A stretch of 64,000 bases of DNA from Oryzisolibacter propanilivorax (GTDB taxonomy: Bacteria > Pseudomonadota > Gammaproteobacteria > Burkholderiales > Burkholderiaceae_C). The stretch covers positions 434,001-498,000 of the forward strand of contig NZ_FNHP01000002.1 of the NCBI RefSeq assembly GCF_900103645.1, in the 5' to 3' direction. Of this stretch, positions 22,873 to 32,941 are shown piece by piece (the stretch's first letter is position 1; each line of letters begins with the position of its first letter). The position numbers were made by a program, and so were the translations under genes. The notes under the pieces were generated by a model. The model was not told where the DNA came from. It worked only from the letters and a program-made list of their open reading frames with translations, and ran no database searches.

Positions 22873-23029
22873 GCCAGGAGGAGGTAAGCGCGGAACACGG
22901 CAGGTACGAGACCGCAGGCGGCCAAGTTTATGCTTCACCTTCCAATACAAGACATGCAAATCCGCACCGCAGTACCAGGCGTTGCCGCTGCGTGGGTTTT
23001 CCCAAAACACAACACCAGGGAGGGGCGCG

Positions 23030-25479
23030 ATGGCCGCCGGTATCCGCCAGCTCAGCGAAACCGACATCTGCGACCGCTTCATCACGCCCGCGCTGCAGCG
23101 CGCCGGCTGGAGCGTGCAGCAGCACATCCTGCGCGAATACACGCTGCGCCCCGGCCGCATGGTGGTGCGTGGCCAGCAGGCACAGCGCGACAGGGCCACC
23201 ATCCTGCGTGCCGACTATGTGCTGCTGCACAAGCCCAACCTGCCCCTGGCCGTGCTGGAGGCCAAGGATGCCGGCCATGCCCCGGGCGCCGGAATGCCGC
23301 AGGCGCTGCGCTATGCCGAACTGCTGGACGTGCCGTTTTGCTTTTCCAGCAATGGCGCAGGCTTCGTCTTCCGCGATGCCACGCTGGCCGATGGCGTGCT
23401 GGAGCGCACGCTCAGTGCCGACGAGCTGCCCTCGCCCGCGCAGCTGTGGGCCCGCTACTGCGCCTGGAAAGGCTGGACGGCGCCCGAGCAGCAGATCGCC
23501 GCCAGCGACTACGCGCCCAGCAAGACACCGCGTTACTACCAGCTCAACGCCATCAACCGCACCGTGCAGGCCATCGCCCAAGGCCAAAAGCGCGTGCTGC
23601 TGGTCATGGCCACCGGCACGGGCAAGACCTACACCGCGTTCCAGATCATCTGGCGGCTGTGGAAGAGCGGCGCCAGGAAGCGCATCCTGTTCCTGGCCGA
23701 CCGCAACATCCTCATCGACCAGACCATGGTCAACGACTTTCGTCCGTTCAAGGGCGCCATGGCCAAGCTCAGCCCGCATGCCAAGGGGATCGAGCGCGTC
23801 GGTGCCCAGGGCCAACCGGCGGTCGAGGACGTGGCCCTGCCGTGCACAAGACCACCAAGCAGGTGGACAAGAGCTACGAGATCTACCTGTCGCTCTACCA
23901 GGCCGTCACCGGCACCGAGGAAGAGCGCGACATCTACAAACAATTCAGCCCCGACTTCTTCGACCTCATCGTCGTCGACGAATGCCACCGGGACAGCGCC
24001 GCCGAGGACTCGGCCTGGCGCGACATCCTGACCTACTTTGCCAGCGCCACGCAGATCGGCCTGACGGCCACGCCCAAGGAGACTGAAGCAGTCTCCAACA
24101 GCGACTACTTCGGTGTGCCGCTCTACACCTACAGCCTCAAGCAGGGCATCGAGGACGGTTACCTGGCGCCCTACAAGGTGGTGCGCGTGGACCTGGACCG
24201 CGACACCTTCGGCTGGCGCCCGCACGAGGGCATGCGCGACAAGTTCGGCCACCTGATCGAGGACCGCATCTACACCGGCGCCGACATGAACCGCAAGCTG
24301 GTCATGGAGCAGCGCGACGCCGTGGTCGCCGGCAAGATCACCGAATACCTCAAGGCCACCGACCGCTACGCCAAGACCATCGTCTTCTGCGAGGACATCG
24401 AGCACGCCGCCCGCATGCGCCAGGCGCTGTCCAACGCCAATGCCGACCTGTGCGCGGCCCAGCCCAAATACGTGGTGCAGATCACCGGCGACAACGCCGA
24501 GGGCAAGCGCGAACTGGACAACTTCATCGACCCGGAGAAAACCTACCCGGTCATCGCCGTCACCTCCAAGCTCATGAGCACCGGCGTGGACGCGCAGACC
24601 TGCAAACTCATCGTGCTGGACCAGACCATTAAGTCCATGACGCTGTTCAAGCAGATCATCGGCCGCGGCACCCGGCTGCGCGAAGACCTGGGCAAGCGCT
24701 GGTTCACCATCCTGGACTTCAAGCGCGCCACCGAACTGTTTGCCGACCCACAATTCGACGGCGAGCCGGTGCAGGTGCATGAGCCCCGCCCTGACCAGCC
24801 GCTGGCGCCGCCCCCACCGGCCGAGCTGCCCGGCGCCAGCCCGCCCGCCAGCGGCTGGCCCGACGACCCGGCGGCCACCGTGGGCCTGCTGCCGGCCGAT
24901 GACGAGGCGCCGCGCAAATACACCGTGGATGGGGTTGCGGTTGGCGTGGCGCGCGAGCGCGTGCAATACCTGAACGCCGAAGGCAAGCTCGTCACCGAGA
25001 GCCTGCGCGACTACACCCGCATCAACCTGCGCAAACAATACGATTCGCTCGACCAGTTCCTGCAGACCTAGCAGCAGGCTGACCGCAAGGCCGCCTTGCT
25101 GCACGAGCTGGAGGGCCAGGGCGTGCTGCTGGACGCCCTGGCCGCCGAGGTCGGCAAGGAGCTGGACCCGTTCGACCTGCTGCTGCACGTCGCCTACGAC
25201 CAGCCGGCGCTGACCCGCCGCGAGCGCGCCCAGCGCGTGCGCAAGCGCAACGTCTTCACCCAGTACGGCCCGGTGGCGCGCAAGGTGCTCGACGCCCTGC
25301 TCGACAAATACGCCGACCAGGGCATCACCACCCTGGAGAGCGACGACGTGCTGCGCCTGCAGCCGATCAGCCAGCTGGGCAGCCCCGCCGAGCTGGTGCG
25401 CAGCTTCGGCGGGCGCCCGCAATACCGGGGCGCGCTGCAGGCCCTGGCCCGCGAGCTGTACGCCCCGCCTGCTGCGTAA
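23030..25479 (+). pseudogene. hsdR: Type I restriction enzyme R subunit, broken by a frameshift and an amber codon
   Basis: HsdR supplies DNA translocation and cleavage for a type I restriction system. From ATG 23030 (after GGGAGGGG) come a PD-(D/E)xK nuclease region (ADYVLLH...[10 protein letters not shown]), Walker [11 protein letters not shown] and motif Ia [11 protein letters not shown]. At about 23839-23840 the frame shifts: one base appears lost from a CTGGCC-like sequence. The rest of the helicase continues in the next frame: [40 protein letters not shown] at 25069-25071 then interrupts that frame where relatives have Trp (FLQT-stop-QQADRKAAL); the last 136 residues follow in frame to 25479. 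Restriction is probably lost unless these are sequencing errors. Confidence 0.88.
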
Positions 25480-25543: not shown

Positions 25544-27025
25544 ATGTCCAACCTCACCCCTGTCATCAAATCCATTCAGGACGTCATGCGCCAGGACTCC
25601 GGCGTCGATGGCGACGCCCAGCGCATCGGCCAGCTCACCTGGCTGCTGTTCCTGAAAGTCTTCGATGCGCTGGAAGAGGAACTCGAACTCACCCGCGACC
25701 ACTACGCCAGCCCGCTGCCCGAAGCACTGCGCTGGCGCGCCTGGGCCGCCGACGCCGAAGGCATGACCGGCGACGCACTGCTCGACTTCGTGGACCAGCA
25801 GCTCTTCCCCGCGCTCAAGAACCTGCCCGCCGACCCGCAGCGCAACCCGCGCGGCTACGTGCTGCGCAGCGTGTTCGAAGACGCCTACAACTACATGAAG
25901 AGCGGCCACCTGCTGCGCCAGGTGGTCAACAAGCTCAACGCCATCGACTTCAACCGCCAGGCCGAGCGCCACCAGTTCAACGACCTGTACGAGAAAATCC
26001 TGCGCGACCTGCAAAGCGCCGGCAACGCCGGCGAGTTCTACACGCCGCGCGCCGTCACCCAGTTCATGGTGGACATGACCAACCCGCAGTTGGGCGAAAG
26101 CGTCATGGACCCCGCCACCGGCACCGGCGGCTTCCTGGTCTGCGCCATCGAGCACCTGCGCAAACAGGTGCACAACGCCGAACAGGAAGCCGTGCTGCAG
26201 AACAGCATCCGCGGCGTCGAGAAAAAACAGCTGCCGCACATGCTGTGCGTCACCAACCTGCTGCTGCACGGCATAGAGGTGCCCAGCCAGATTGCGCACG
26301 ACAACACCCTGGCGCGCCCGCTGCGCGACTATTCCAACGCCGACCGCGTGGACGTCATCCTCACCAACCCGCCGTTTGGCGGCATCGAGGAGCCGGGCAT
26401 CGAGCAGGGCTTTCCCGCCGACGTGCGCACCAAGGAAACCGCCGACCTGTTCCTGGTGCTCATCCAGCACCTGCTCAAGCCCGGCGGCCGCGCTGCCGTG
26501 GTGCTGCCCGATGGCTTCTTGTTCGGCGAGGGCGTCAAGGCGCGCATCAAGGAGCAGCTGCTGCAGCACTGCAACCTGCACACCATCGTGCGCCTGCCCA
26601 ACGGCGTGTTTGCGCCCTACACCGGCATCAAGACCAACCTGCTGTTCTTCACCAAGGGCCAGCCGACCCAGCACATCTGGTACTACGAGCACCCGTACCC
26701 CCAGGGCGTCAAAACCTACAACAAGACCAAACCCATCCGCATCGACGAGTTCGACGCCGAGAAAGCCTGGTGGGGCAACGAGGCCGACGGATTCGCCGCC
26801 CGAGTGGAAAACGAGCGCGCGTGGAAGGTCGGCATCGACGCCATCCGCGCCGCCAACTGGAACCTCGACCAGAAGAATCCGCATGTCGGCGAACAGCAAA
26901 GCCACGACCCCGAAGTGCTGCTGGCCGACTATGCCCGCCTGCAGGCCGAAGCCCAGGCCCTGCGCGACGAGCTCAAGGGCATCCTGGCGGAGTGTTTGAA
27001 TGCCAAAACGGCCGCTGGCGCTTGA
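25544..27025 (+). CDS. hsdM: Type I restriction-modification system DNA methyltransferase M subunit
   Basis: A 493-residue N6-adenine methyltransferase subunit. The N-terminal HsdM helical domain (SIQDVMRQDSGVDGDAQR, LTWLLFLKVFDA) is followed by the catalytic domain. SAM motif I is MDPATGTGGFLVCAIE, and catalytic motif IV is NPPFGG within ILTNPPFGGIEEPGIEQGF. Unlike hsdR it is intact. With HsdS it would methylate the recognition sequence even if restriction is lost. The end of the gene and the start of hsdS overlap a dispersed repeat (27003-27058). Confidence 0.96.
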   Translation: MSNLTPVIKSIQDVMRQDSGVDGDAQRIGQLTWLLFLKVFDALEEELELTRDHYASPLPEALRWRAWAADAEGMTGDALLDFVDQQLFPALKNLPADPQRNPRGYVLRSVFEDAYNYMKSGHLLRQVVNKLNAIDFNRQAERHQFNDLYEKILRDLQSAGNAGEFYTPRAVTQFMVDMTNPQLGESVMDPATGTGGFLVCAIEHLRKQVHNAEQEAVLQNSIRGVEKKQLPHMLCVTNLLLHGIEVPSQIAHDNTLARPLRDYSNADRVDVILTNPPFGGIEEPGIEQGFPADVRTKETADLFLVLIQHLLKPGGRAAVVLPDGFLFGEGVKARIKEQLLQHCNLHTIVRLPNGVFAPYTGIKTNLLFFTKGQPTQHIWYYEHPYPQGVKTYNKTKPIRIDEFDAEKAWWGNEADGFAARVENERAWKVGIDAIRAANWNLDQKNPHVGEQQSHDPEVLLADYARLQAEAQALRDELKGILAECLNAKTAAGA

Positions 27026-27058
27026 AGGGCAAGGGCATGCTGCTATCAAATTTGGATG
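27003..27058 (+). repeat. Dispersed repeat A, copy 6, spanning the hsdM/hsdS junction
   Basis: Forward orientation: CCAAAACGGCCGCTGGCGC, GGGCAAGGGC, then GCTGCTATCAAATTTGGATG. It supplies the last codons of hsdM, the 11-base gap and the first codons of hsdS (MLLSNLD). The GGGCAAGGGC arm also sits where the hsdS ribosome-binding site should be. Confidence 0.7.
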
Positions 27059-28755
27059 TGCTGGCTACTGCGCCCGGTGGCGTCGCCAAGCTGCGCGAAC
27101 TCATCTTGACCCTGGCCGTGCAAGGCAAGCTGGTGCCACAGGACCCGGCCGATGAACCGGCGGGTGTGCTGCTGCAGAAGATTCGGGCGGAGAAGGATCG
27201 GCTGATTGCCGAAGGCAGGATCAAGCGGGACAAGCCGCTGGCGGAGATAGCGGAGGAGGAGAAGCCGTTTGAGTTGCCGCAGGGGTGGGAGTGGGCGCGG
27301 CTTGGAGCGGTGGTTAACGCCAGTGAAGCGGGCTGGAGTCCTACCTGTATTGGGTCTCCCCGTCGCCCCGGCCATTGGGGTGTTTTGAAGGTCAGCGCAG
27401 TCTCTTGGGGGAGGTTTGACCCGACAGCCAATAAGGAACTCCCCTCGGAGCTGGCACCCAAGCCTGAATGCGAGGTCAAGGATGGCGATTTCCTTTTGTC
27501 TCGGGCGAACACTGCTGAACTCGTTGCGCGATCAGTGGTGGTCGGAGTGGCGGAGCCTCAGCTCATGTTGAGCGACAAGATCATTCGGTTGGCGGTTTCC
27601 AGCCAGATGAGTCGTGCCTTTCTCAATATGGTGAACAACGCAAGCTATTCGCGTAAGCACTACGCGGCGAATGCGTCTGGCACCAGCAGCTCAATGAAAA
27701 ACGTATCGCGTGAGGTGGTGCTGGCTTTGCCGGCCCCGCTCCCACCCCTCTCCGAACAATCCCGCATCGTCACCCGCGTCGAAGCCCTCATGCGCCTGTG
27801 CGATGCGCTGGAGGCCAAGGGCCAGCTGGAGGCCACGGAACACGCCCAACTGGTCAGCACCCTGCTGGGCACGCTCACCGCCAGCGCCACGCCCGAGGAG
27901 CTGGCTGACAACTGGCAGCGCGTGGCCCAGCACTTCGACCTGCTGCTGGACCGCCCCGAAGCCATCGACACCCTGGAGCAAACCCTGCTGCAATTGGCCG
28001 TGCGCGGCCTGCTCGTGCCCCAAGACCCCACCGACGAACCCGCCAGCGCCCTGCTGCAAAAAATCCGCGCCGAAAAAGACCGCCTCATCGCCACCGGCCA
28101 GATCAAACGCGACAAACCCCTGCCGCCCATCACCGACGAGGAAGAGCCGTTTGAGTTGCCGGTGGGGTGGGAGTGGGTGCGCGTCGGTGACGTTGTAGAG
28201 CTACTCAACGGTTACGCGTTTAAGAGCGAGTGGTTCAAACCAGCCGGAGTTCGGCTTTTGCGCAACGTGAACATCAGTCATGGTCACGTTGATTGGTCTG
28301 CGCCGGTCATGCTTGATGCAGTTGCCGCGCAGAGTTATGAGCAGTTCGCTCTACACGTGGGGAACATCGTTCTTTCGCTAGATCGTCCCATTATCTCCAC
28401 GGGCCTGAAGTACGCAGTCATTCGAGAATCTGACTTGCCGTGCCTACTGCTCCAGCGGGTAGCTCGACTCACCGCATCTGCCTGTTTATCGCCCGAGTTT
28501 CTGCAGCTTTGGCTCCAGTCGGATTTGTTCGTGGGCACTATCGACCCCGGTCGAAGCAACGGGGTGCCACACATATCGACGAAGCAGGTGGCGGGGCTGG
28601 CTTTCGCCCTCCCTCCCCTTGCCGAACAATCCCGCATCGTCACCCGCGTCACCGCCCTGCGCCGCCTGTGCGCCGACCTGCGCCAGCGTCTGGCCGAACG
28701 CCAGTCCGTACAGGTTCGCCTGGCAGATGCGCTGGTGGCGTCCGTGGCACGATAG
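27037..28755 (+). CDS. hsdS: Type I restriction-modification system specificity S subunit
   Basis: A 572-residue DNA-recognition subunit with two target-recognition domains (TRDs), each bracketed by near-identical conserved segments. QGKLVPQDPADEPAGVLLQK recurs later as RGLLVPQDPTDEPASALLQK, and both lead to IRAEKDRLIA, a FELP..GWEW motif and the TRD. Each TRD ends in LPPLSEQSRIVTRVEAL or LPPLAEQSRIVTRVTAL. Both TRDs (about nt 27300-27720 and 28190-28600) are visibly poorer in GC than the conserved blocks, as expected if they are exchanged by recombination. ATG 27037 lies in a dispersed repeat; its ribosome-binding site is weak. Confidence 0.93.
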   Translation: MLLSNLDVLATAPGGVAKLRELILTLAVQGKLVPQDPADEPAGVLLQKIRAEKDRLIAEGRIKRDKPLAEIAEEEKPFELPQGWEWARLGAVVNASEAGWSPTCIGSPRRPGHWGVLKVSAVSWGRFDPTANKELPSELAPKPECEVKDGDFLLSRANTAELVARSVVVGVAEPQLMLSDKIIRLAVSSQMSRAFLNMVNNASYSRKHYAANASGTSSSMKNVSREVVLALPAPLPPLSEQSRIVTRVEALMRLCDALEAKGQLEATEHAQLVSTLLGTLTASATPEELADNWQRVAQHFDLLLDRPEAIDTLEQTLLQLAVRGLLVPQDPTDEPASALLQKIRAEKDRLIATGQIKRDKPLPPITDEEEPFELPVGWEWVRVGDVVELLNGYAFKSEWFKPAGVRLLRNVNISHGHVDWSAPVMLDAVAAQSYEQFALHVGNIVLSLDRPIISTGLKYAVIRESDLPCLLLQRVARLTASACLSPEFLQLWLQSDLFVGTIDPGRSNGVPHISTKQVAGLAFALPPLAEQSRIVTRVTALRRLCADLRQRLAERQSVQVRLADALVASVAR

Positions 28756-28773
28756 CCCGTTCTCTCTAAAAAA

Positions 28774-28788
28774 TTACCACCATGGTAA
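28774..28788. promoter_or_regulatory. Candidate operator of the TAC locus
   Basis: TTACC-ACCAT-GGTAA is a 5-5-5 inverted repeat that covers the first possible start codon (ATG 28782) of the toxin gene. MqsA antitoxins are known to bind short palindromes with ACCT/AGGT-like arms at their own promoters; this site has the right form and place. Assignment to the MqsA-like protein is inference. Confidence 0.5.
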
Positions 28789-29195
28789 ATATGGTCGTCG
28801 TCTCAGAGTACAGTCTGAATCCTCCAGCGGATGCCCAGGGACGCACCAAGATCGCCCAGGGCCCCCTCTACGCACTGGCGCGGGTTCAGCAGCTTGCAGC
28901 GGCTGGAAGCCTGAATACCTGGACCAGCCGTTGCGACAAGACGGTGTATGAGTTGTTCGCAGGGGATCTCGAAGCTGTGGCCGATCTCTTAGGGCATCTG
29001 CGCTCCACCGACTACCGTGACTCCGAGTGGTGCACCAATGGACGCAATGCCTGGGCAGCCTGTGACGCCTATGCGCTGCGCCGTGTGGAATGGGTGGCCA
29101 CCGCGAGCAAGGAGATGGGCGTTGAATATTTTGTGAAGTTTGCAGTGGGCAAGACGGGGCAACTGTTGTTGCTGGTGTCGTGCCATCTGTCTTGA
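28782..29195 (+). CDS. MqsR-like toxin of a toxin-antitoxin-chaperone locus
   Basis: A 137-residue protein (134 if ATG 28791 is used). The pattern resembles MqsR ribonucleases: helix LARVQQLAAAG, central LLGHLRSTDYRDSEWC, and a C-terminal strand pair VEYFVKFAVGKTGQLLLLVS like MqsR's xYVKFxxxxxxLLLSF. MqsR cleaves mRNA and belongs to the RelE fold. Identification is strengthened by order: the next gene encodes an MqsA-like antitoxin, giving the unusual toxin-first arrangement of mqsRA, and a SecB-like gene follows. It begins 26 bases after hsdS. The base composition is less GC-rich than housekeeping genes here. There is no clear ribosome-binding site at either start. Confidence 0.68.
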   Translation: MVNMVVVSEYSLNPPADAQGRTKIAQGPLYALARVQQLAAAGSLNTWTSRCDKTVYELFAGDLEAVADLLGHLRSTDYRDSEWCTNGRNAWAACDAYALRRVEWVATASKEMGVEYFVKFAVGKTGQLLLLVSCHLS

Positions 29196-29207
29196 AGGAG
29201 AGCCGAC

Positions 29208-29789
29208 ATGGAAAACAAGGCGCTGTGCGCCATTTGTGGCGAAGGCCACGTCACCGCGCTCACCCGGGCGGTGGAAACGCAATACAAAGGCGCCAAGGCC
29301 CTGCTGCCCATGCACTACCAGCAGTGCGACACCTGCACCTCGGACTACGCGGGCATGGCGGAATCCAAGCTGAACAAGCGCATCGTGATGGCGTTCCGCA
29401 AGCAGATCGACGGTTTGCTGACCGGCGATGAGATCGCGGCGCTGCGCAAGCAATACCGGCTCACCCAGGCGCAGGCCGCCCAGCTGTTTGGTGGTGGGCC
29501 GGTGGCGTTCAGCAAGTACGAAAACGACGATGTGGCCCAGTCCGAGGCGATGGACACCTTGCTGCGCCTGGTGCGCCGCAGCGCCGAGGCATTCTGGGCG
29601 CTGGTGGAAGAAAAGGGCCTGCAGGCCGAGTTCACCCAGCAGCGTGCAAGCGTGCGTTCCAGCATGCAGGTTGCTGCAAACGTGGTGGCGTTCAAGAGGG
29701 TGCCAGTGCATCCCGGCGCGCCTGACCCGCACTACCGCCCCCGGGAGTTCCGCAGGTTCGACCAAGGAGCCGTTTCATGTCCGCGTTGA
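29208..29789 (+). CDS. MqsA-like antitoxin with C-terminal extension
   Basis: A 193-residue antitoxin and probable self-regulator. The N-terminal zinc-ribbon Cys are at 7, 10, 40 and 43 (CAIC, CDTC), a helical linker follows, and an HTH-Xre-type domain lies at about 70-122 (LTGDEIAALRKQYRLTQAQA, VAFSKYENDDVAQSEAMDTL). These match MqsA. Beyond about residue 130, where E. coli MqsA would end, there is an extension of about 60 residues ending HYRPREFRRFDQ. In known TAC systems such an extension is the chaperone-addiction region bound by the SecB-like partner. A good ribosome-binding site (AAGGAG) precedes ATG 29208. The 3' end overlaps the chaperone gene by 13 bases. Confidence 0.85.
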   Translation: MENKALCAICGEGHVTALTRAVETQYKGAKALLPMHYQQCDTCTSDYAGMAESKLNKRIVMAFRKQIDGLLTGDEIAALRKQYRLTQAQAAQLFGGGPVAFSKYENDDVAQSEAMDTLLRLVRRSAEAFWALVEEKGLQAEFTQQRASVRSSMQVAANVVAFKRVPVHPGAPDPHYRPREFRRFDQGAVSCPR

Positions 29790-30202
29790 CCGTTCATCGC
29801 CCGGTGCTTCGCAGCTTCCGTGTGCTCGCCTGCCAGGGCGACAACCGGGGCGAAGCCGCTGGCGTGGCGATGCGGCTGGATTTTCAGCAAGAGATCGAAT
29901 TTGGCTTGGCCGTTCCCGAGGTTGCAGGGGCGCCGCTGATGGTGGGCGTCAAGATCAAGCTGGAGACAGTGGCCACCAACCACAACGATGCCAGCGACGT
30001 CGCCCGCTACAGCAGTGAGTACGAGGCGCGGTTTTATTACCCGGCAGGCGTGACAGAGGATGCCGTTGCGCCGCTGCTGGATGACCACGACTACCAGTAC
30101 GCCCTCATCGCACAGGCTTACCCTTTGGCCATGACGCACCTACGCCGTGAGCTCCAGGCCATGGGGCTGGACGCGCGCGAATTGCCCCTGGGCTTGCCCT
30201 AG
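29777..30202 (+). CDS. SecB-like chaperone of the TAC locus
   Basis: A 141-residue protein resembling solitary SecB-like chaperones. It has beta-strand-rich N-terminal two thirds (VAMRLDFQQEIEFGLAV, LMVGVKIKLETVATN, YSSEYEARFYYPAG) and a C-terminal helix pair (YALIAQAYPLAMTHLRREL) ending DARELPLGLP. Similarity is by fold pattern; I cannot run a profile search. Position is the strongest support: third gene after an MqsR/MqsA pair, overlapping the antitoxin by 13 bases with its own AAGGAG site. In TAC systems this chaperone folds and protects the antitoxin; loss or hijack of the chaperone frees the toxin. Confidence 0.72.
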   Translation: MSALTVHRPVLRSFRVLACQGDNRGEAAGVAMRLDFQQEIEFGLAVPEVAGAPLMVGVKIKLETVATNHNDASDVARYSSEYEARFYYPAGVTEDAVAPLLDDHDYQYALIAQAYPLAMTHLRRELQAMGLDARELPLGLP

Positions 30203-30250
30203 CACTGATGCAGGGCGCCGGTGCTTGCCGCGCGCATGATCCGCCAAAGA

Positions 30251-30283
30251 AACGGGCCAGCAAGTGTGTCTTGCTGGCCCGTT
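30251..30283. terminator. Bidirectional terminator between the TAC locus and gyrB
   Basis: A 14-base perfect stem (AACGGGCCAGCAAG / CTTGCTGGCCCGTT) with a 5-base loop. It lies 48 bases after the chaperone stop and 24 bases after the gyrB stop, in convergent orientation. The minus-strand side continues TCTTTGG, the plus-strand side CTGTTGG. Confidence 0.82.
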
Positions 30284-30307
30284 CTGTTGGATGCGGCAGG
30301 TGAACGC

Positions 30308-32941
<2,634 letters not shown>

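What the first reader, a model, noticed from the sequence alone, without database searches (positions are those of the whole stretch)
28756..30202. Three-gene toxin-antitoxin-chaperone (TAC) locus: MqsR-like, extended MqsA-like, SecB-like
Seen: three overlapping or tightly spaced genes in the order toxin, zinc-ribbon/HTH antitoxin, SecB-like protein. The antitoxin has about 60 residues beyond the usual MqsA end. Known: TAC systems use a SecB-like chaperone that binds a C-terminal extension of the antitoxin, and some TAC systems act against phages. Inference: this is an MqsRAC-type system in a beta-proteobacterium, placed beside a restriction-modification locus. The toxin is diverged from E. 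coli MqsR, so its RNA target may differ.
Basis: partly seen in the sequence, partly recalled or inferred. Interest (0 to 1): 0.87.

Follow-up and report, generated by a model that had tools for sequence, protein, structure and literature searches.

The report
MqsR-like toxin-antitoxin-chaperone operon beside restriction genes
Three small genes in a bacterium related to Acidovorax probably encode a self-poisoning toxin, its antidote and a helper that keeps the antidote folded; such sets are known and some stop viruses, but this one has an altered toxin active site and a likely on/off DNA site right on the toxin's start codon.

Summary
Toxin (28782-29195), MqsA-type antitoxin (29208-29789, about 58 residues longer than ordinary MqsA) and third gene (29777-30202) form a tight operon, found as a triad in 17 loci counting the window. 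The third protein has no sequence-level SecB match, but its predicted structure is SecB-like (best match: the M. tuberculosis TAC chaperone Rv1957). The toxin model best matches E. coli MqsR, yet the four residues needed for MqsR toxicity are replaced (K56>D, Q68>C, Y81>F, K96>H); the His is invariant in 22 of 22 aligned toxins. One close relative lost the restriction genes at this locus but kept the TAC under purifying selection, so the TAC is not simply a restriction accessory. Related cassettes sit in phage immunity regions, some with a non-SecB third gene. Toxicity and phage defence are inferred, not shown.

The parts
28774..28788 (+). inverted repeat TTACC-ACCAT-GGTAA overlapping the toxin start codon; proposed antitoxin operator
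   Evidence: Only match in the 64 kb window, 0.00 expected in 100 shuffles; present in 28 of 37 toxin loci; 52 of 55 matches in all sequence held lie within 700 nt of a toxin
28782..29195 (+). toxin, MqsR-like (137 aa)
   Evidence: Structure model to MqsR 3hi2_D Z 11.3, rmsd 2.6, 91 aligned; PF15723 15.2 bits, below cut-off; 8 of 10 aligned family members match PF15723 at E <= 1, best 1.3e-4
29208..29789 (+). antitoxin, MqsA family with C-terminal extension (193 aa)
   Evidence: PF15731 E 1.1e-21; TIGR03830 above cut-off; PDB 3gn5 E 2.1e-11
29613..29786 (+). antitoxin residues 136-193: extension beyond the usual MqsA end, candidate chaperone-addiction (ChAD) segment with HYRPREFRRF
   Evidence: Tail comparison; ordinary MqsA length
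29777..30202 (+). SecB-fold chaperone-like protein (141 aa)
   Evidence: AlphaFold2 pLDDT 84; Foldseek top hits 5mtw Rv1957 and SecB chains; Z 11.6 to 5mtw_D; no SecB match by sequence
25544..27025 (+). neighbour: type I R-M methyltransferase HsdM
   Evidence: PF02384 E 2.7e-71
27031..28755 (+). neighbour: type I specificity subunit HsdS (start approximate); ends 26 bp before the toxin
   Evidence: PF01420, two stretches, in ORF 26245-28755
22930..25071 (+). neighbour: HsdR (EcoAI family), cut short by an in-frame TAG after 713 codons
   Evidence: NF046051 599.8 bits over cut-off 550; the frame after the stop matches 9 of 11 stretches searched

Best explanation
A toxin-antitoxin-chaperone (TAC) operon of MqsRAC type. 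Shown: gene order, MqsA homology, MqsR-like and SecB-like predicted folds, extended antitoxin, conserved start-codon repeat, weak predicted ribosome pairing for the toxin and strong for antitoxin and chaperone, purifying selection on all three genes. Inferred: the antitoxin binds TTACC-N5-GGTAA over the toxin start and represses the operon while it is plentiful. Its tail makes it unstable unless the SecB-like protein holds it. When the chaperone is lost or drawn away (by analogy, by an abundant phage structural protein), the antitoxin is degraded, the toxin is freed and cleaves RNA, and growth or phage production stops. The toxin probably cuts RNA with a different residue set from E. coli MqsR, centred on invariant His135 with Glu82, Asp95, Tyr97 and Lys119.
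For: Fold matches; profile link to MqsR; MqsA identity; triad in 17 loci; SecB-annotated or weakly SecB-matching third genes in more distant relatives; extended tails with TAC and none in ordinary MqsA; start-codon repeat; predicted ribosome pairing dG <= -5 (my threshold) in 1 of 20 toxins, 17 of 20 antitoxins, 16 of 20 third genes; dN/dS 0.16, 0.08, 0.12 against the nearest relative; defence-type genes adjacent to 8 of 15 loci of this type (hsdS in 5, HsdM-like in L012, AAA ATPase in L023, Shedu-like in L013). By others: chaperone dependence of an MqsRA TAC of Vibrio cholerae (PMC5105189, passages) and phage triggering of CmdTAC (PMC11618068, passages).
Against: No sequence-level SecB match for the third protein, even with an 11-sequence profile. 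The window toxin is below the PF15723 cut-off and has lost all four residues needed in E. coli MqsR. Two proteins of unknown function (2o2a, 2hng) also match the chaperone model at Z 9.7-10.1. The toxin model has modest confidence (pLDDT 73.7), Foldseek alone put no MqsR in its 50 listed rows, and the 10-row toxin profile gave only 9% probability. Nine of 37 toxin loci lack the repeat, two of them cut by their contig. Nothing here tests toxicity, binding or defence.
Confidence: 0.85

Rival explanations
1. Guard of the restriction system: the TAC is a suicide back-up for the adjacent type I R-M, fired when a phage disables HsdRMS, as PrrC is for EcoprrI (analogy recalled).
For: hsdS directly upstream in 5 of the 15 loci of this TAC type whose upstream side I examined: window, L006, L007, L008 and a Polaromonas plasmid L019; the wider surroundings differ, so the pair may travel together.
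Against: At this locus relative G004 has only hsdR remnants but keeps an intact TAC at dN/dS 0.08-0.16; 0 of 18 stretches around related hsdM genes carry a TAC, though five of them reach less than 400 nt past hsdS or do not pass it, and hsdS was not recognised in three others; 10 of the 15 loci have no hsdS upstream; the window's own hsdR has a premature stop.
Confidence: 0.1
2. Ordinary two-gene mqsRA addiction module; the third gene is only a neighbour.
For: Two related loci, in Mitsuaria (L021) and G755 (L048), have toxin and extended antitoxin but no third gene that the profile recognises.
Against: This third gene type stays next to the pair in 17 loci, overlaps the antitoxin by 13 bp in the window, and is SecB-like by fold.
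Confidence: 0.04
3. Inactive or repurposed toxin: with its MqsR catalytic residues gone, the first protein is now a regulator or a binding partner rather than a nuclease.
For: K56, Q68, Y81 and K96 equivalents are D80, C94, F117 and H135.
Against: Six positions (W83, C84, D95, Y97, K119, H135) are invariant in the 22 toxins aligned, window included, down to 25% identity, which suggests an active site; dN/dS 0.16; the tested V. cholerae TAC toxin appears, from primer-encoded residues, to be of this branch, and that TAC worked as a toxin system in E. coli (PMC5105189, passages; inference).
Confidence: 0.07

Closest known systems
Vcho-TAC (MqsRA + SecB-like) of Vibrio cholerae RC385, Bordes et al. 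2016, PMC5105189
   Same: Gene order toxin-MqsA-SecB-like, MqsA C-terminal extension acting as ChAD, similar gene sizes; the toxin primer encodes MVNN as in the Vibrio crassostreae relative L020, which has the start-codon repeat
   Different: The window chaperone belongs to a branch whose profile does not match the L020 third protein; the ChAD differs; the repeat and active-site change are not in the passages I read
HigBA1-SecB(TA) of Mycobacterium tuberculosis (HigA1 Rv1956, chaperone Rv1957)
   Same: Its chaperone (5mtw) is the best Foldseek match to the window chaperone model
   Different: HigB/HigA toxin and antitoxin, not MqsR/MqsA
MqsR/MqsA of E. coli K-12
   Same: Predicted toxin fold, MqsA N-terminal zinc domain and HTH, operator core ACC-N5-GGT
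   Different: No tail, no chaperone, operator in the promoter, different catalytic residues
MqsRAC of E. coli C496_10 (PMC9519451, PMC10783111); a 2025 review speaks of higBAC of E. coli C496 (PMC11980606)
   Same: Three-gene TAC reported to block phage T2 and, in the second paper, to act together with McrBC restriction
   Different: Toxin family named differently by different authors; relation to the window toxin not established here
CmdTAC (PMC11618068)
   Same: SecB-like chaperone whose titration by a phage capsid protein frees the toxin
   Different: ADP-ribosyltransferase toxin and unrelated antitoxin

Membership tests
TAC (toxin-antitoxin-chaperone) | three genes in one operon: toxin, antitoxin, SecB-like chaperone | tested here: met
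   ORFs with 12 bp gap and 13 bp overlap; conserved together in 17 loci; co-transcription itself not tested
TAC (toxin-antitoxin-chaperone) | chaperone of SecB fold | tested here: met
   (predicted structure)
TAC (toxin-antitoxin-chaperone) | antitoxin with C-terminal extension absent from two-gene relatives | tested here: met
   193 aa against 133-135 aa in 8 of 10 two-gene relatives; against: L021 and L048 have the extension without a recognised third gene
TAC (toxin-antitoxin-chaperone) | extension binds chaperone and makes the antitoxin chaperone-dependent | not testable with these tools
   needs binding and rescue assays
TAC (toxin-antitoxin-chaperone) | toxicity relieved only by antitoxin plus chaperone | not testable with these tools
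   needs growth assays
MqsA antitoxin (PF15731 / TIGR03830) | score over curated cut-off | tested here: met
   77.8 over 30 bits; 116.2 over 61.8
MqsR toxin (PF15723) | score over curated cut-off | tested here: not met
   15.2 against 26.2 bits; relative L018 reaches 27.7
MqsR toxin (PF15723) | MqsR fold | tested here: met
   Z 11.3 to 3hi2_D; hhalign E 4e-7 for the 22-row family, probability only 9% for the 10-row one
MqsR toxin (PF15723) | functional residues K56, Q68, Y81, K96 (PMC2791442, PMC9636575, passages) | tested here: not met
   D80, C94, F117, H135; the K96-H135 pairing extends the hhalign alignment, which ends at Ser133, by two residues
SecB (PF02556) | sequence profile match | tested here: not met
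   no SecB match at E <= 1 for the window protein or the 10 aligned homologues; a separate true SecB in the same genome, 187.7 bits
Anti-phage defence system | reduces phage plating | not testable with these tools
   only neighbourhood evidence

The most novel reading that the evidence does not exclude
The window operon represents a distinct branch of MqsR-type TACs with a rewired Glu/His-type RNase active site, whose toxin is translated without a Shine-Dalgarno site (possibly from a leaderless message) from a start codon buried in the antitoxin's own operator, so that one protein may block both transcription and translation of the toxin; and in which the third, phage-sensing slot is exchangeable, filled by SecB-like proteins in most lineages but by unrelated small proteins in some phages that carry the cassette beside their repressor gene.
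Probability: 0.3. Interest if true: 0.75.

Novelty: new variant of a known kind. Interest (0 to 1): 0.5.

Why it matters
TACs are thought to sense phage proteins through the chaperone, but few are characterised, and the best-known example named MqsRAC seems to go by two names. This branch gives a test set in which toxin chemistry, operator position and third protein vary. The start-codon repeat is a 15-bp signature that could help to find such cassettes where toxin and chaperone are annotated only as hypothetical proteins. The altered active site, if functional, would show that the MqsR scaffold supports a second catalytic solution.

Tried and rejected
PDB sequence searches with the single chaperone, its 11-row profile, the single toxin, its 10-row profile and the phage Hali toxin found no SecB or MqsR. 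NCBIfam, PADLOC and PHROGs do not name the window toxin or chaperone. A class-wide search with the chaperone profile matched 2 of 369 genomes: the window's own and a partial match (profile positions 12-66) inside a 509-residue frame of G354, not followed. hhalign of the 10-row toxin alignment against canonical MqsR gave 9%; only the 22-row one gave 93%. Obligate R-M linkage was considered and dropped. A sigma-70 promoter scan over 28600-30350 found none, so 'leaderless' is only a possibility. A pattern scan of viral contigs with the repeat plus spaced bases gave one locus without a toxin.

Rows dropped: the toxin of L003/L023 (frame broken) is not in A3 or A4; L005/L025 is in A4 but not in A1-A3; L006 antitoxin (masked bases) is not in A2; L011 (contig cut) is in none. 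The 22 rows of A4 were chosen by me from the toxins then held. In one search the 20 loci are part of the 28 with the repeat, and the antitoxin start given for L046 is misplaced, so its row counts as a miss. The weak toxin match in G042 was not followed. Of 24 other genomes with an hsdM match I fetched 17 (18 stretches); the seven left out are at 48-51% identity. The dN/dS values are from my own Nei-Gojobori script, without confidence limits.

Full report
WHAT IS THERE. The window holds three genes on the + strand: toxin 28782-29195 (137 aa), antitoxin 29208-29789 (193 aa), third gene 29777-30202 (141 aa). Spacing is 12 bp and then a 13 bp overlap; hsdS ends 26 bp upstream and gyrB (minus strand, named by eye) ends 105 bp downstream. 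The antitoxin is MqsA (PF15731 E 1.1e-21; TIGR03830 over its cut-off). The toxin scores 15.2 bits against PF15723, below the 26.2 cut-off. The third protein matches no family above a cut-off and no PDB sequence.

RELATIVES. The chaperone was found in 5 of 100 genomes near the window, its own included, in 2 of 369 genomes class-wide with the profile (own plus one partial match), and at 8 loci in one scan of the genome collection: Acidovorax, Malikia, Hydrogenophaga and an unnamed Burkholderiales bin. Toxin, MqsA and this type of third gene lie together in 17 distinct loci counting the window; the toxin frame is broken in L023, cut by the contig in L050 and split by the record origin in L060. 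The toxin profile matched 15 of 399 family genomes. tblastn of the toxin found 16 plasmid records and 3 phage records; the chaperone found 2 plasmid records. In the 10 plasmid regions opened, the gene after MqsA is annotated SecB in 5 (Shewanella, Cupriavidus, Vibrio harveyi, Thiodictyon, Acinetobacter), hypothetical in 4 (Polaromonas, Vibrio crassostreae, Acinetobacter bereziniae, Shinella) and absent in 1 (Mitsuaria). Third genes of several more distant relatives match Pfam SecB weakly, all below its cut-off (E 3.6e-5 to 0.07); those of L020, L025 and L054 do not match it.

FOLDS. The chaperone model (pLDDT 84, pTM 0.76) has four strands and two helices. Its best Foldseek match is 5mtw, the M. 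tuberculosis TAC chaperone Rv1957, then SecB chains. VIA-align gives Z 11.6 (rmsd 2.8, 125 aligned) to 5mtw_D and 11.2-11.3 to SecB; two streptococcal proteins of unknown function reach 9.7-10.1, and everything else outside SecB is at or below 5.8. The toxin model is less sure (pLDDT 73.7). Foldseek alone did not list MqsR among its 50 rows, but realignment of its 1000 candidates gave MqsR 3hi2_D Z 11.3 (rmsd 2.6, 91 aligned), with the next entry at 4.3. A 22-sequence toxin profile aligns to 9 canonical MqsRs with hhalign E 4e-7, probability 93%; the 10-sequence profile alone gave 9%.

TOXIN ACTIVE SITE. In E. coli MqsR, K56A, Q68A, Y81A and K96A lose toxicity (PMC2791442, passages), and K56 and Y81 are needed for RNA cleavage, with no catalytic Glu/His (PMC9636575, passages). 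By the profile alignment the window has D80 for K56, C94 for Q68, F117 for Y81 and, two residues beyond the alignment's end, H135 for K96. Counts in the 22 aligned toxins, window included: position 80 is D in 11, N 4, G 3, K 2, E 1, S 1; position 94 is C in 19, A in 3; position 117 is Y in 12, F in 10; W83, C84, D95, Y97, K119 and H135 are invariant; E82 is in 20. The 9 aligned canonical MqsRs keep K56, Q68 and K96 in 9 of 9 and Y81 in 8. So this branch has a different, conserved residue set. That it is catalytic is inference.

ANTITOXIN TAIL. Ordinary MqsA beside canonical MqsR, which occurs in 10 of 120 family genomes, is 133-135 aa in 8 of the 10 loci. The extended antitoxins run 85-159 residues from the conserved GGG motif of the HTH to the end, against 42 in the two ordinary ones measured; the 133 of L006 is inflated by masked bases. 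Tails differ between lineages; the Acidovorax/Malikia type mostly shares Y.PR.FR.F. The DNA-recognition segment differs too: mostly FGGGPVAFSKYE in the extended antitoxins (PK, PS or SV variants occur, and IGGGGNAFAKYE in phage Hali) against FGGGVNAFSRYE.

OPERATOR ON THE START CODON. A perfect inverted repeat TTACC-N5-GGTAA lies at 28774-28788, around the toxin ATG at 28782. It is the only match in the window (0.00 expected). It is present in 28 of 37 toxin loci: 27 by direct count and the Shinella plasmid through its other end, L041; some are near-identical pairs. It is absent from L018, L021, L048, L051, L052, L053 and L057, and not seen in L050 and L121, which are cut by their contigs; in L057 a transposase gene precedes a shortened toxin. 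In all sequence held, 52 of 55 matches lie within 700 nt of a toxin (loci overlap, so these are not independent); two of the other three lie in the phage regulatory region of L120 and one came from a pattern scan. Canonical mqsRA loci carry a related repeat, AACC-N5-GGTT, 20 to 37 bases before the position I took as the start, in 7 of 10; this agrees with the published MqsA site AACCT-N3-AGGTT (PMC4894380, abstract in the listing). Predicted ribosome pairing is at or below -5 kcal/mol, a threshold I chose, in 1 of 20 toxins, 17 of 20 antitoxins (one start misplaced) and 16 of 20 third genes. I infer that the antitoxin represses here, that the toxin is translated poorly, and that this keeps the antitoxin in excess.

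RESTRICTION NEIGHBOUR. hsdS is directly upstream in 5 of the 15 loci of this type whose upstream side I examined: window, L006, L007, L008, L019. In the sister genome G004 only parts of hsdR remain at this locus (with a few bases like the hsdS end, my reading), and homology to the window resumes three bases before the repeat. Its TAC is intact, with dN/dS 0.16 (toxin), 0.08 (antitoxin) and 0.12 (chaperone) against the window. Around related hsdM genes, 0 of 18 fetched stretches hold a TAC; five reach less than 400 nt past hsdS or do not pass it, and in three no hsdS was recognised. The two systems probably travel together at times without depending on each other. One study reports E. coli MqsRAC acting together with McrBC restriction against T2 (PMC10783111, passages), so cooperation is possible.

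PHAGES. Escherichia phage PhiR70_1 and Klebsiella phage 2b carry the cassette after a repressor-type gene. In the first it lies between cI and kil/gam, the place that rexAB holds in lambda (recalled). Scans of viral contigs gave five near copies of the PhiR70_1 toxin and five more distant ones. A PhiR70_1-like cassette covers at least 80% of the query in 18 of 5426 E. coli genomes; in strain 442/2 it is in a prophage, with the third gene called SecB. In three viral contigs (L120, L123, L124) the third gene is a different small protein family, and in Pseudomonas phage Hali it resembles DUF6941 weakly (E 1.7e-4, under the cut-off). The third position may therefore be exchangeable; this is the boldest lead.

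MECHANISM AND PRIOR ART. TACs with MqsA antitoxins are known: the V. cholerae RC385 MqsRA-SecB system was shown to depend on its chaperone through the antitoxin tail (PMC5105189, passages). Translating primers printed there by eye, its toxin begins MVNNAIN and its tail AGVERNI, close to MVNNQRN and AGVKRQI of the Vibrio crassostreae relative L020, so it is probably of this branch (inference). Titration of the chaperone by a phage capsid protein frees CmdT in CmdTAC (PMC11618068, passages). MqsRAC of E. coli C496_10 blocks T2 (PMC9519451, passages), but a 2025 review speaks of higBAC of E. coli C496 (PMC11980606, passages); I could not settle which name is right. My searches for a start-codon operator or for this locus type found nothing relevant in the held library, which lacks most subscription journals.

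VERDICT. It meets every TAC feature that could be tested here; the toxin is MqsR-like rather than a strict PF15723 member. Toxicity, chaperone dependence and phage defence remain untested.

Noticed in passing
window 25069-25071: hsdR (EcoAI family) has an in-frame TAG after 713 codons; the frame goes on with homology to the end of intact relatives, so the restriction subunit may be truncated, or the base call wrong.
   Followed up: partly
L120, L123, L124 (viral contigs), gene after MqsA: In the SecB position lies a small protein of unknown family, with the toxin start-codon repeat kept.
   Followed up: partly
L018 5025-5423 (Pseudomonas phage Hali) and L125: MqsR-like toxin, extended MqsA and a DUF6941-like third gene after an integrase gene.
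   Followed up: partly
L016 4001-5523, L129 6114-7624: TAC in a lambda-like phage between repressor and kil/gam, the usual rexAB place (recalled); 18 of 5426 E. coli genomes hold a close copy.
   Followed up: partly
L120 3035 and 5798: Two further TTACC-N5-GGTAA sites (ATATTACCTTTTAGGTAATAT) in the phage regulatory region; phage repressor and TAC antitoxin may share site preference.
   Followed up: no
L009 and L010 (Malikia), window 30202-30308: The TAC lies at the 3' end of gyrB (named by eye) in Malikia on the same strand and in the window on the opposite strand, suggesting an insertion hot spot.
   Followed up: no
L022 7263-7824 (genome G004): Remnants of hsdR next to an intact TAC: the restriction genes were lost here and the TAC kept.
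   Followed up: yes
L008 4261-4713: A second hsdS-like stretch follows the TAC in Acidovorax soli, as if the cassette lay between hsdS copies.
   Followed up: no
L021 and L048: Toxin plus extended antitoxin with a YEPRQFR tail but no recognised third gene and no start-codon repeat.
   Followed up: partly
L057 5001-6544: MqsR-like TAC directly upstream of a DISARM drmA gene on a Thiodictyon plasmid.
   Followed up: no
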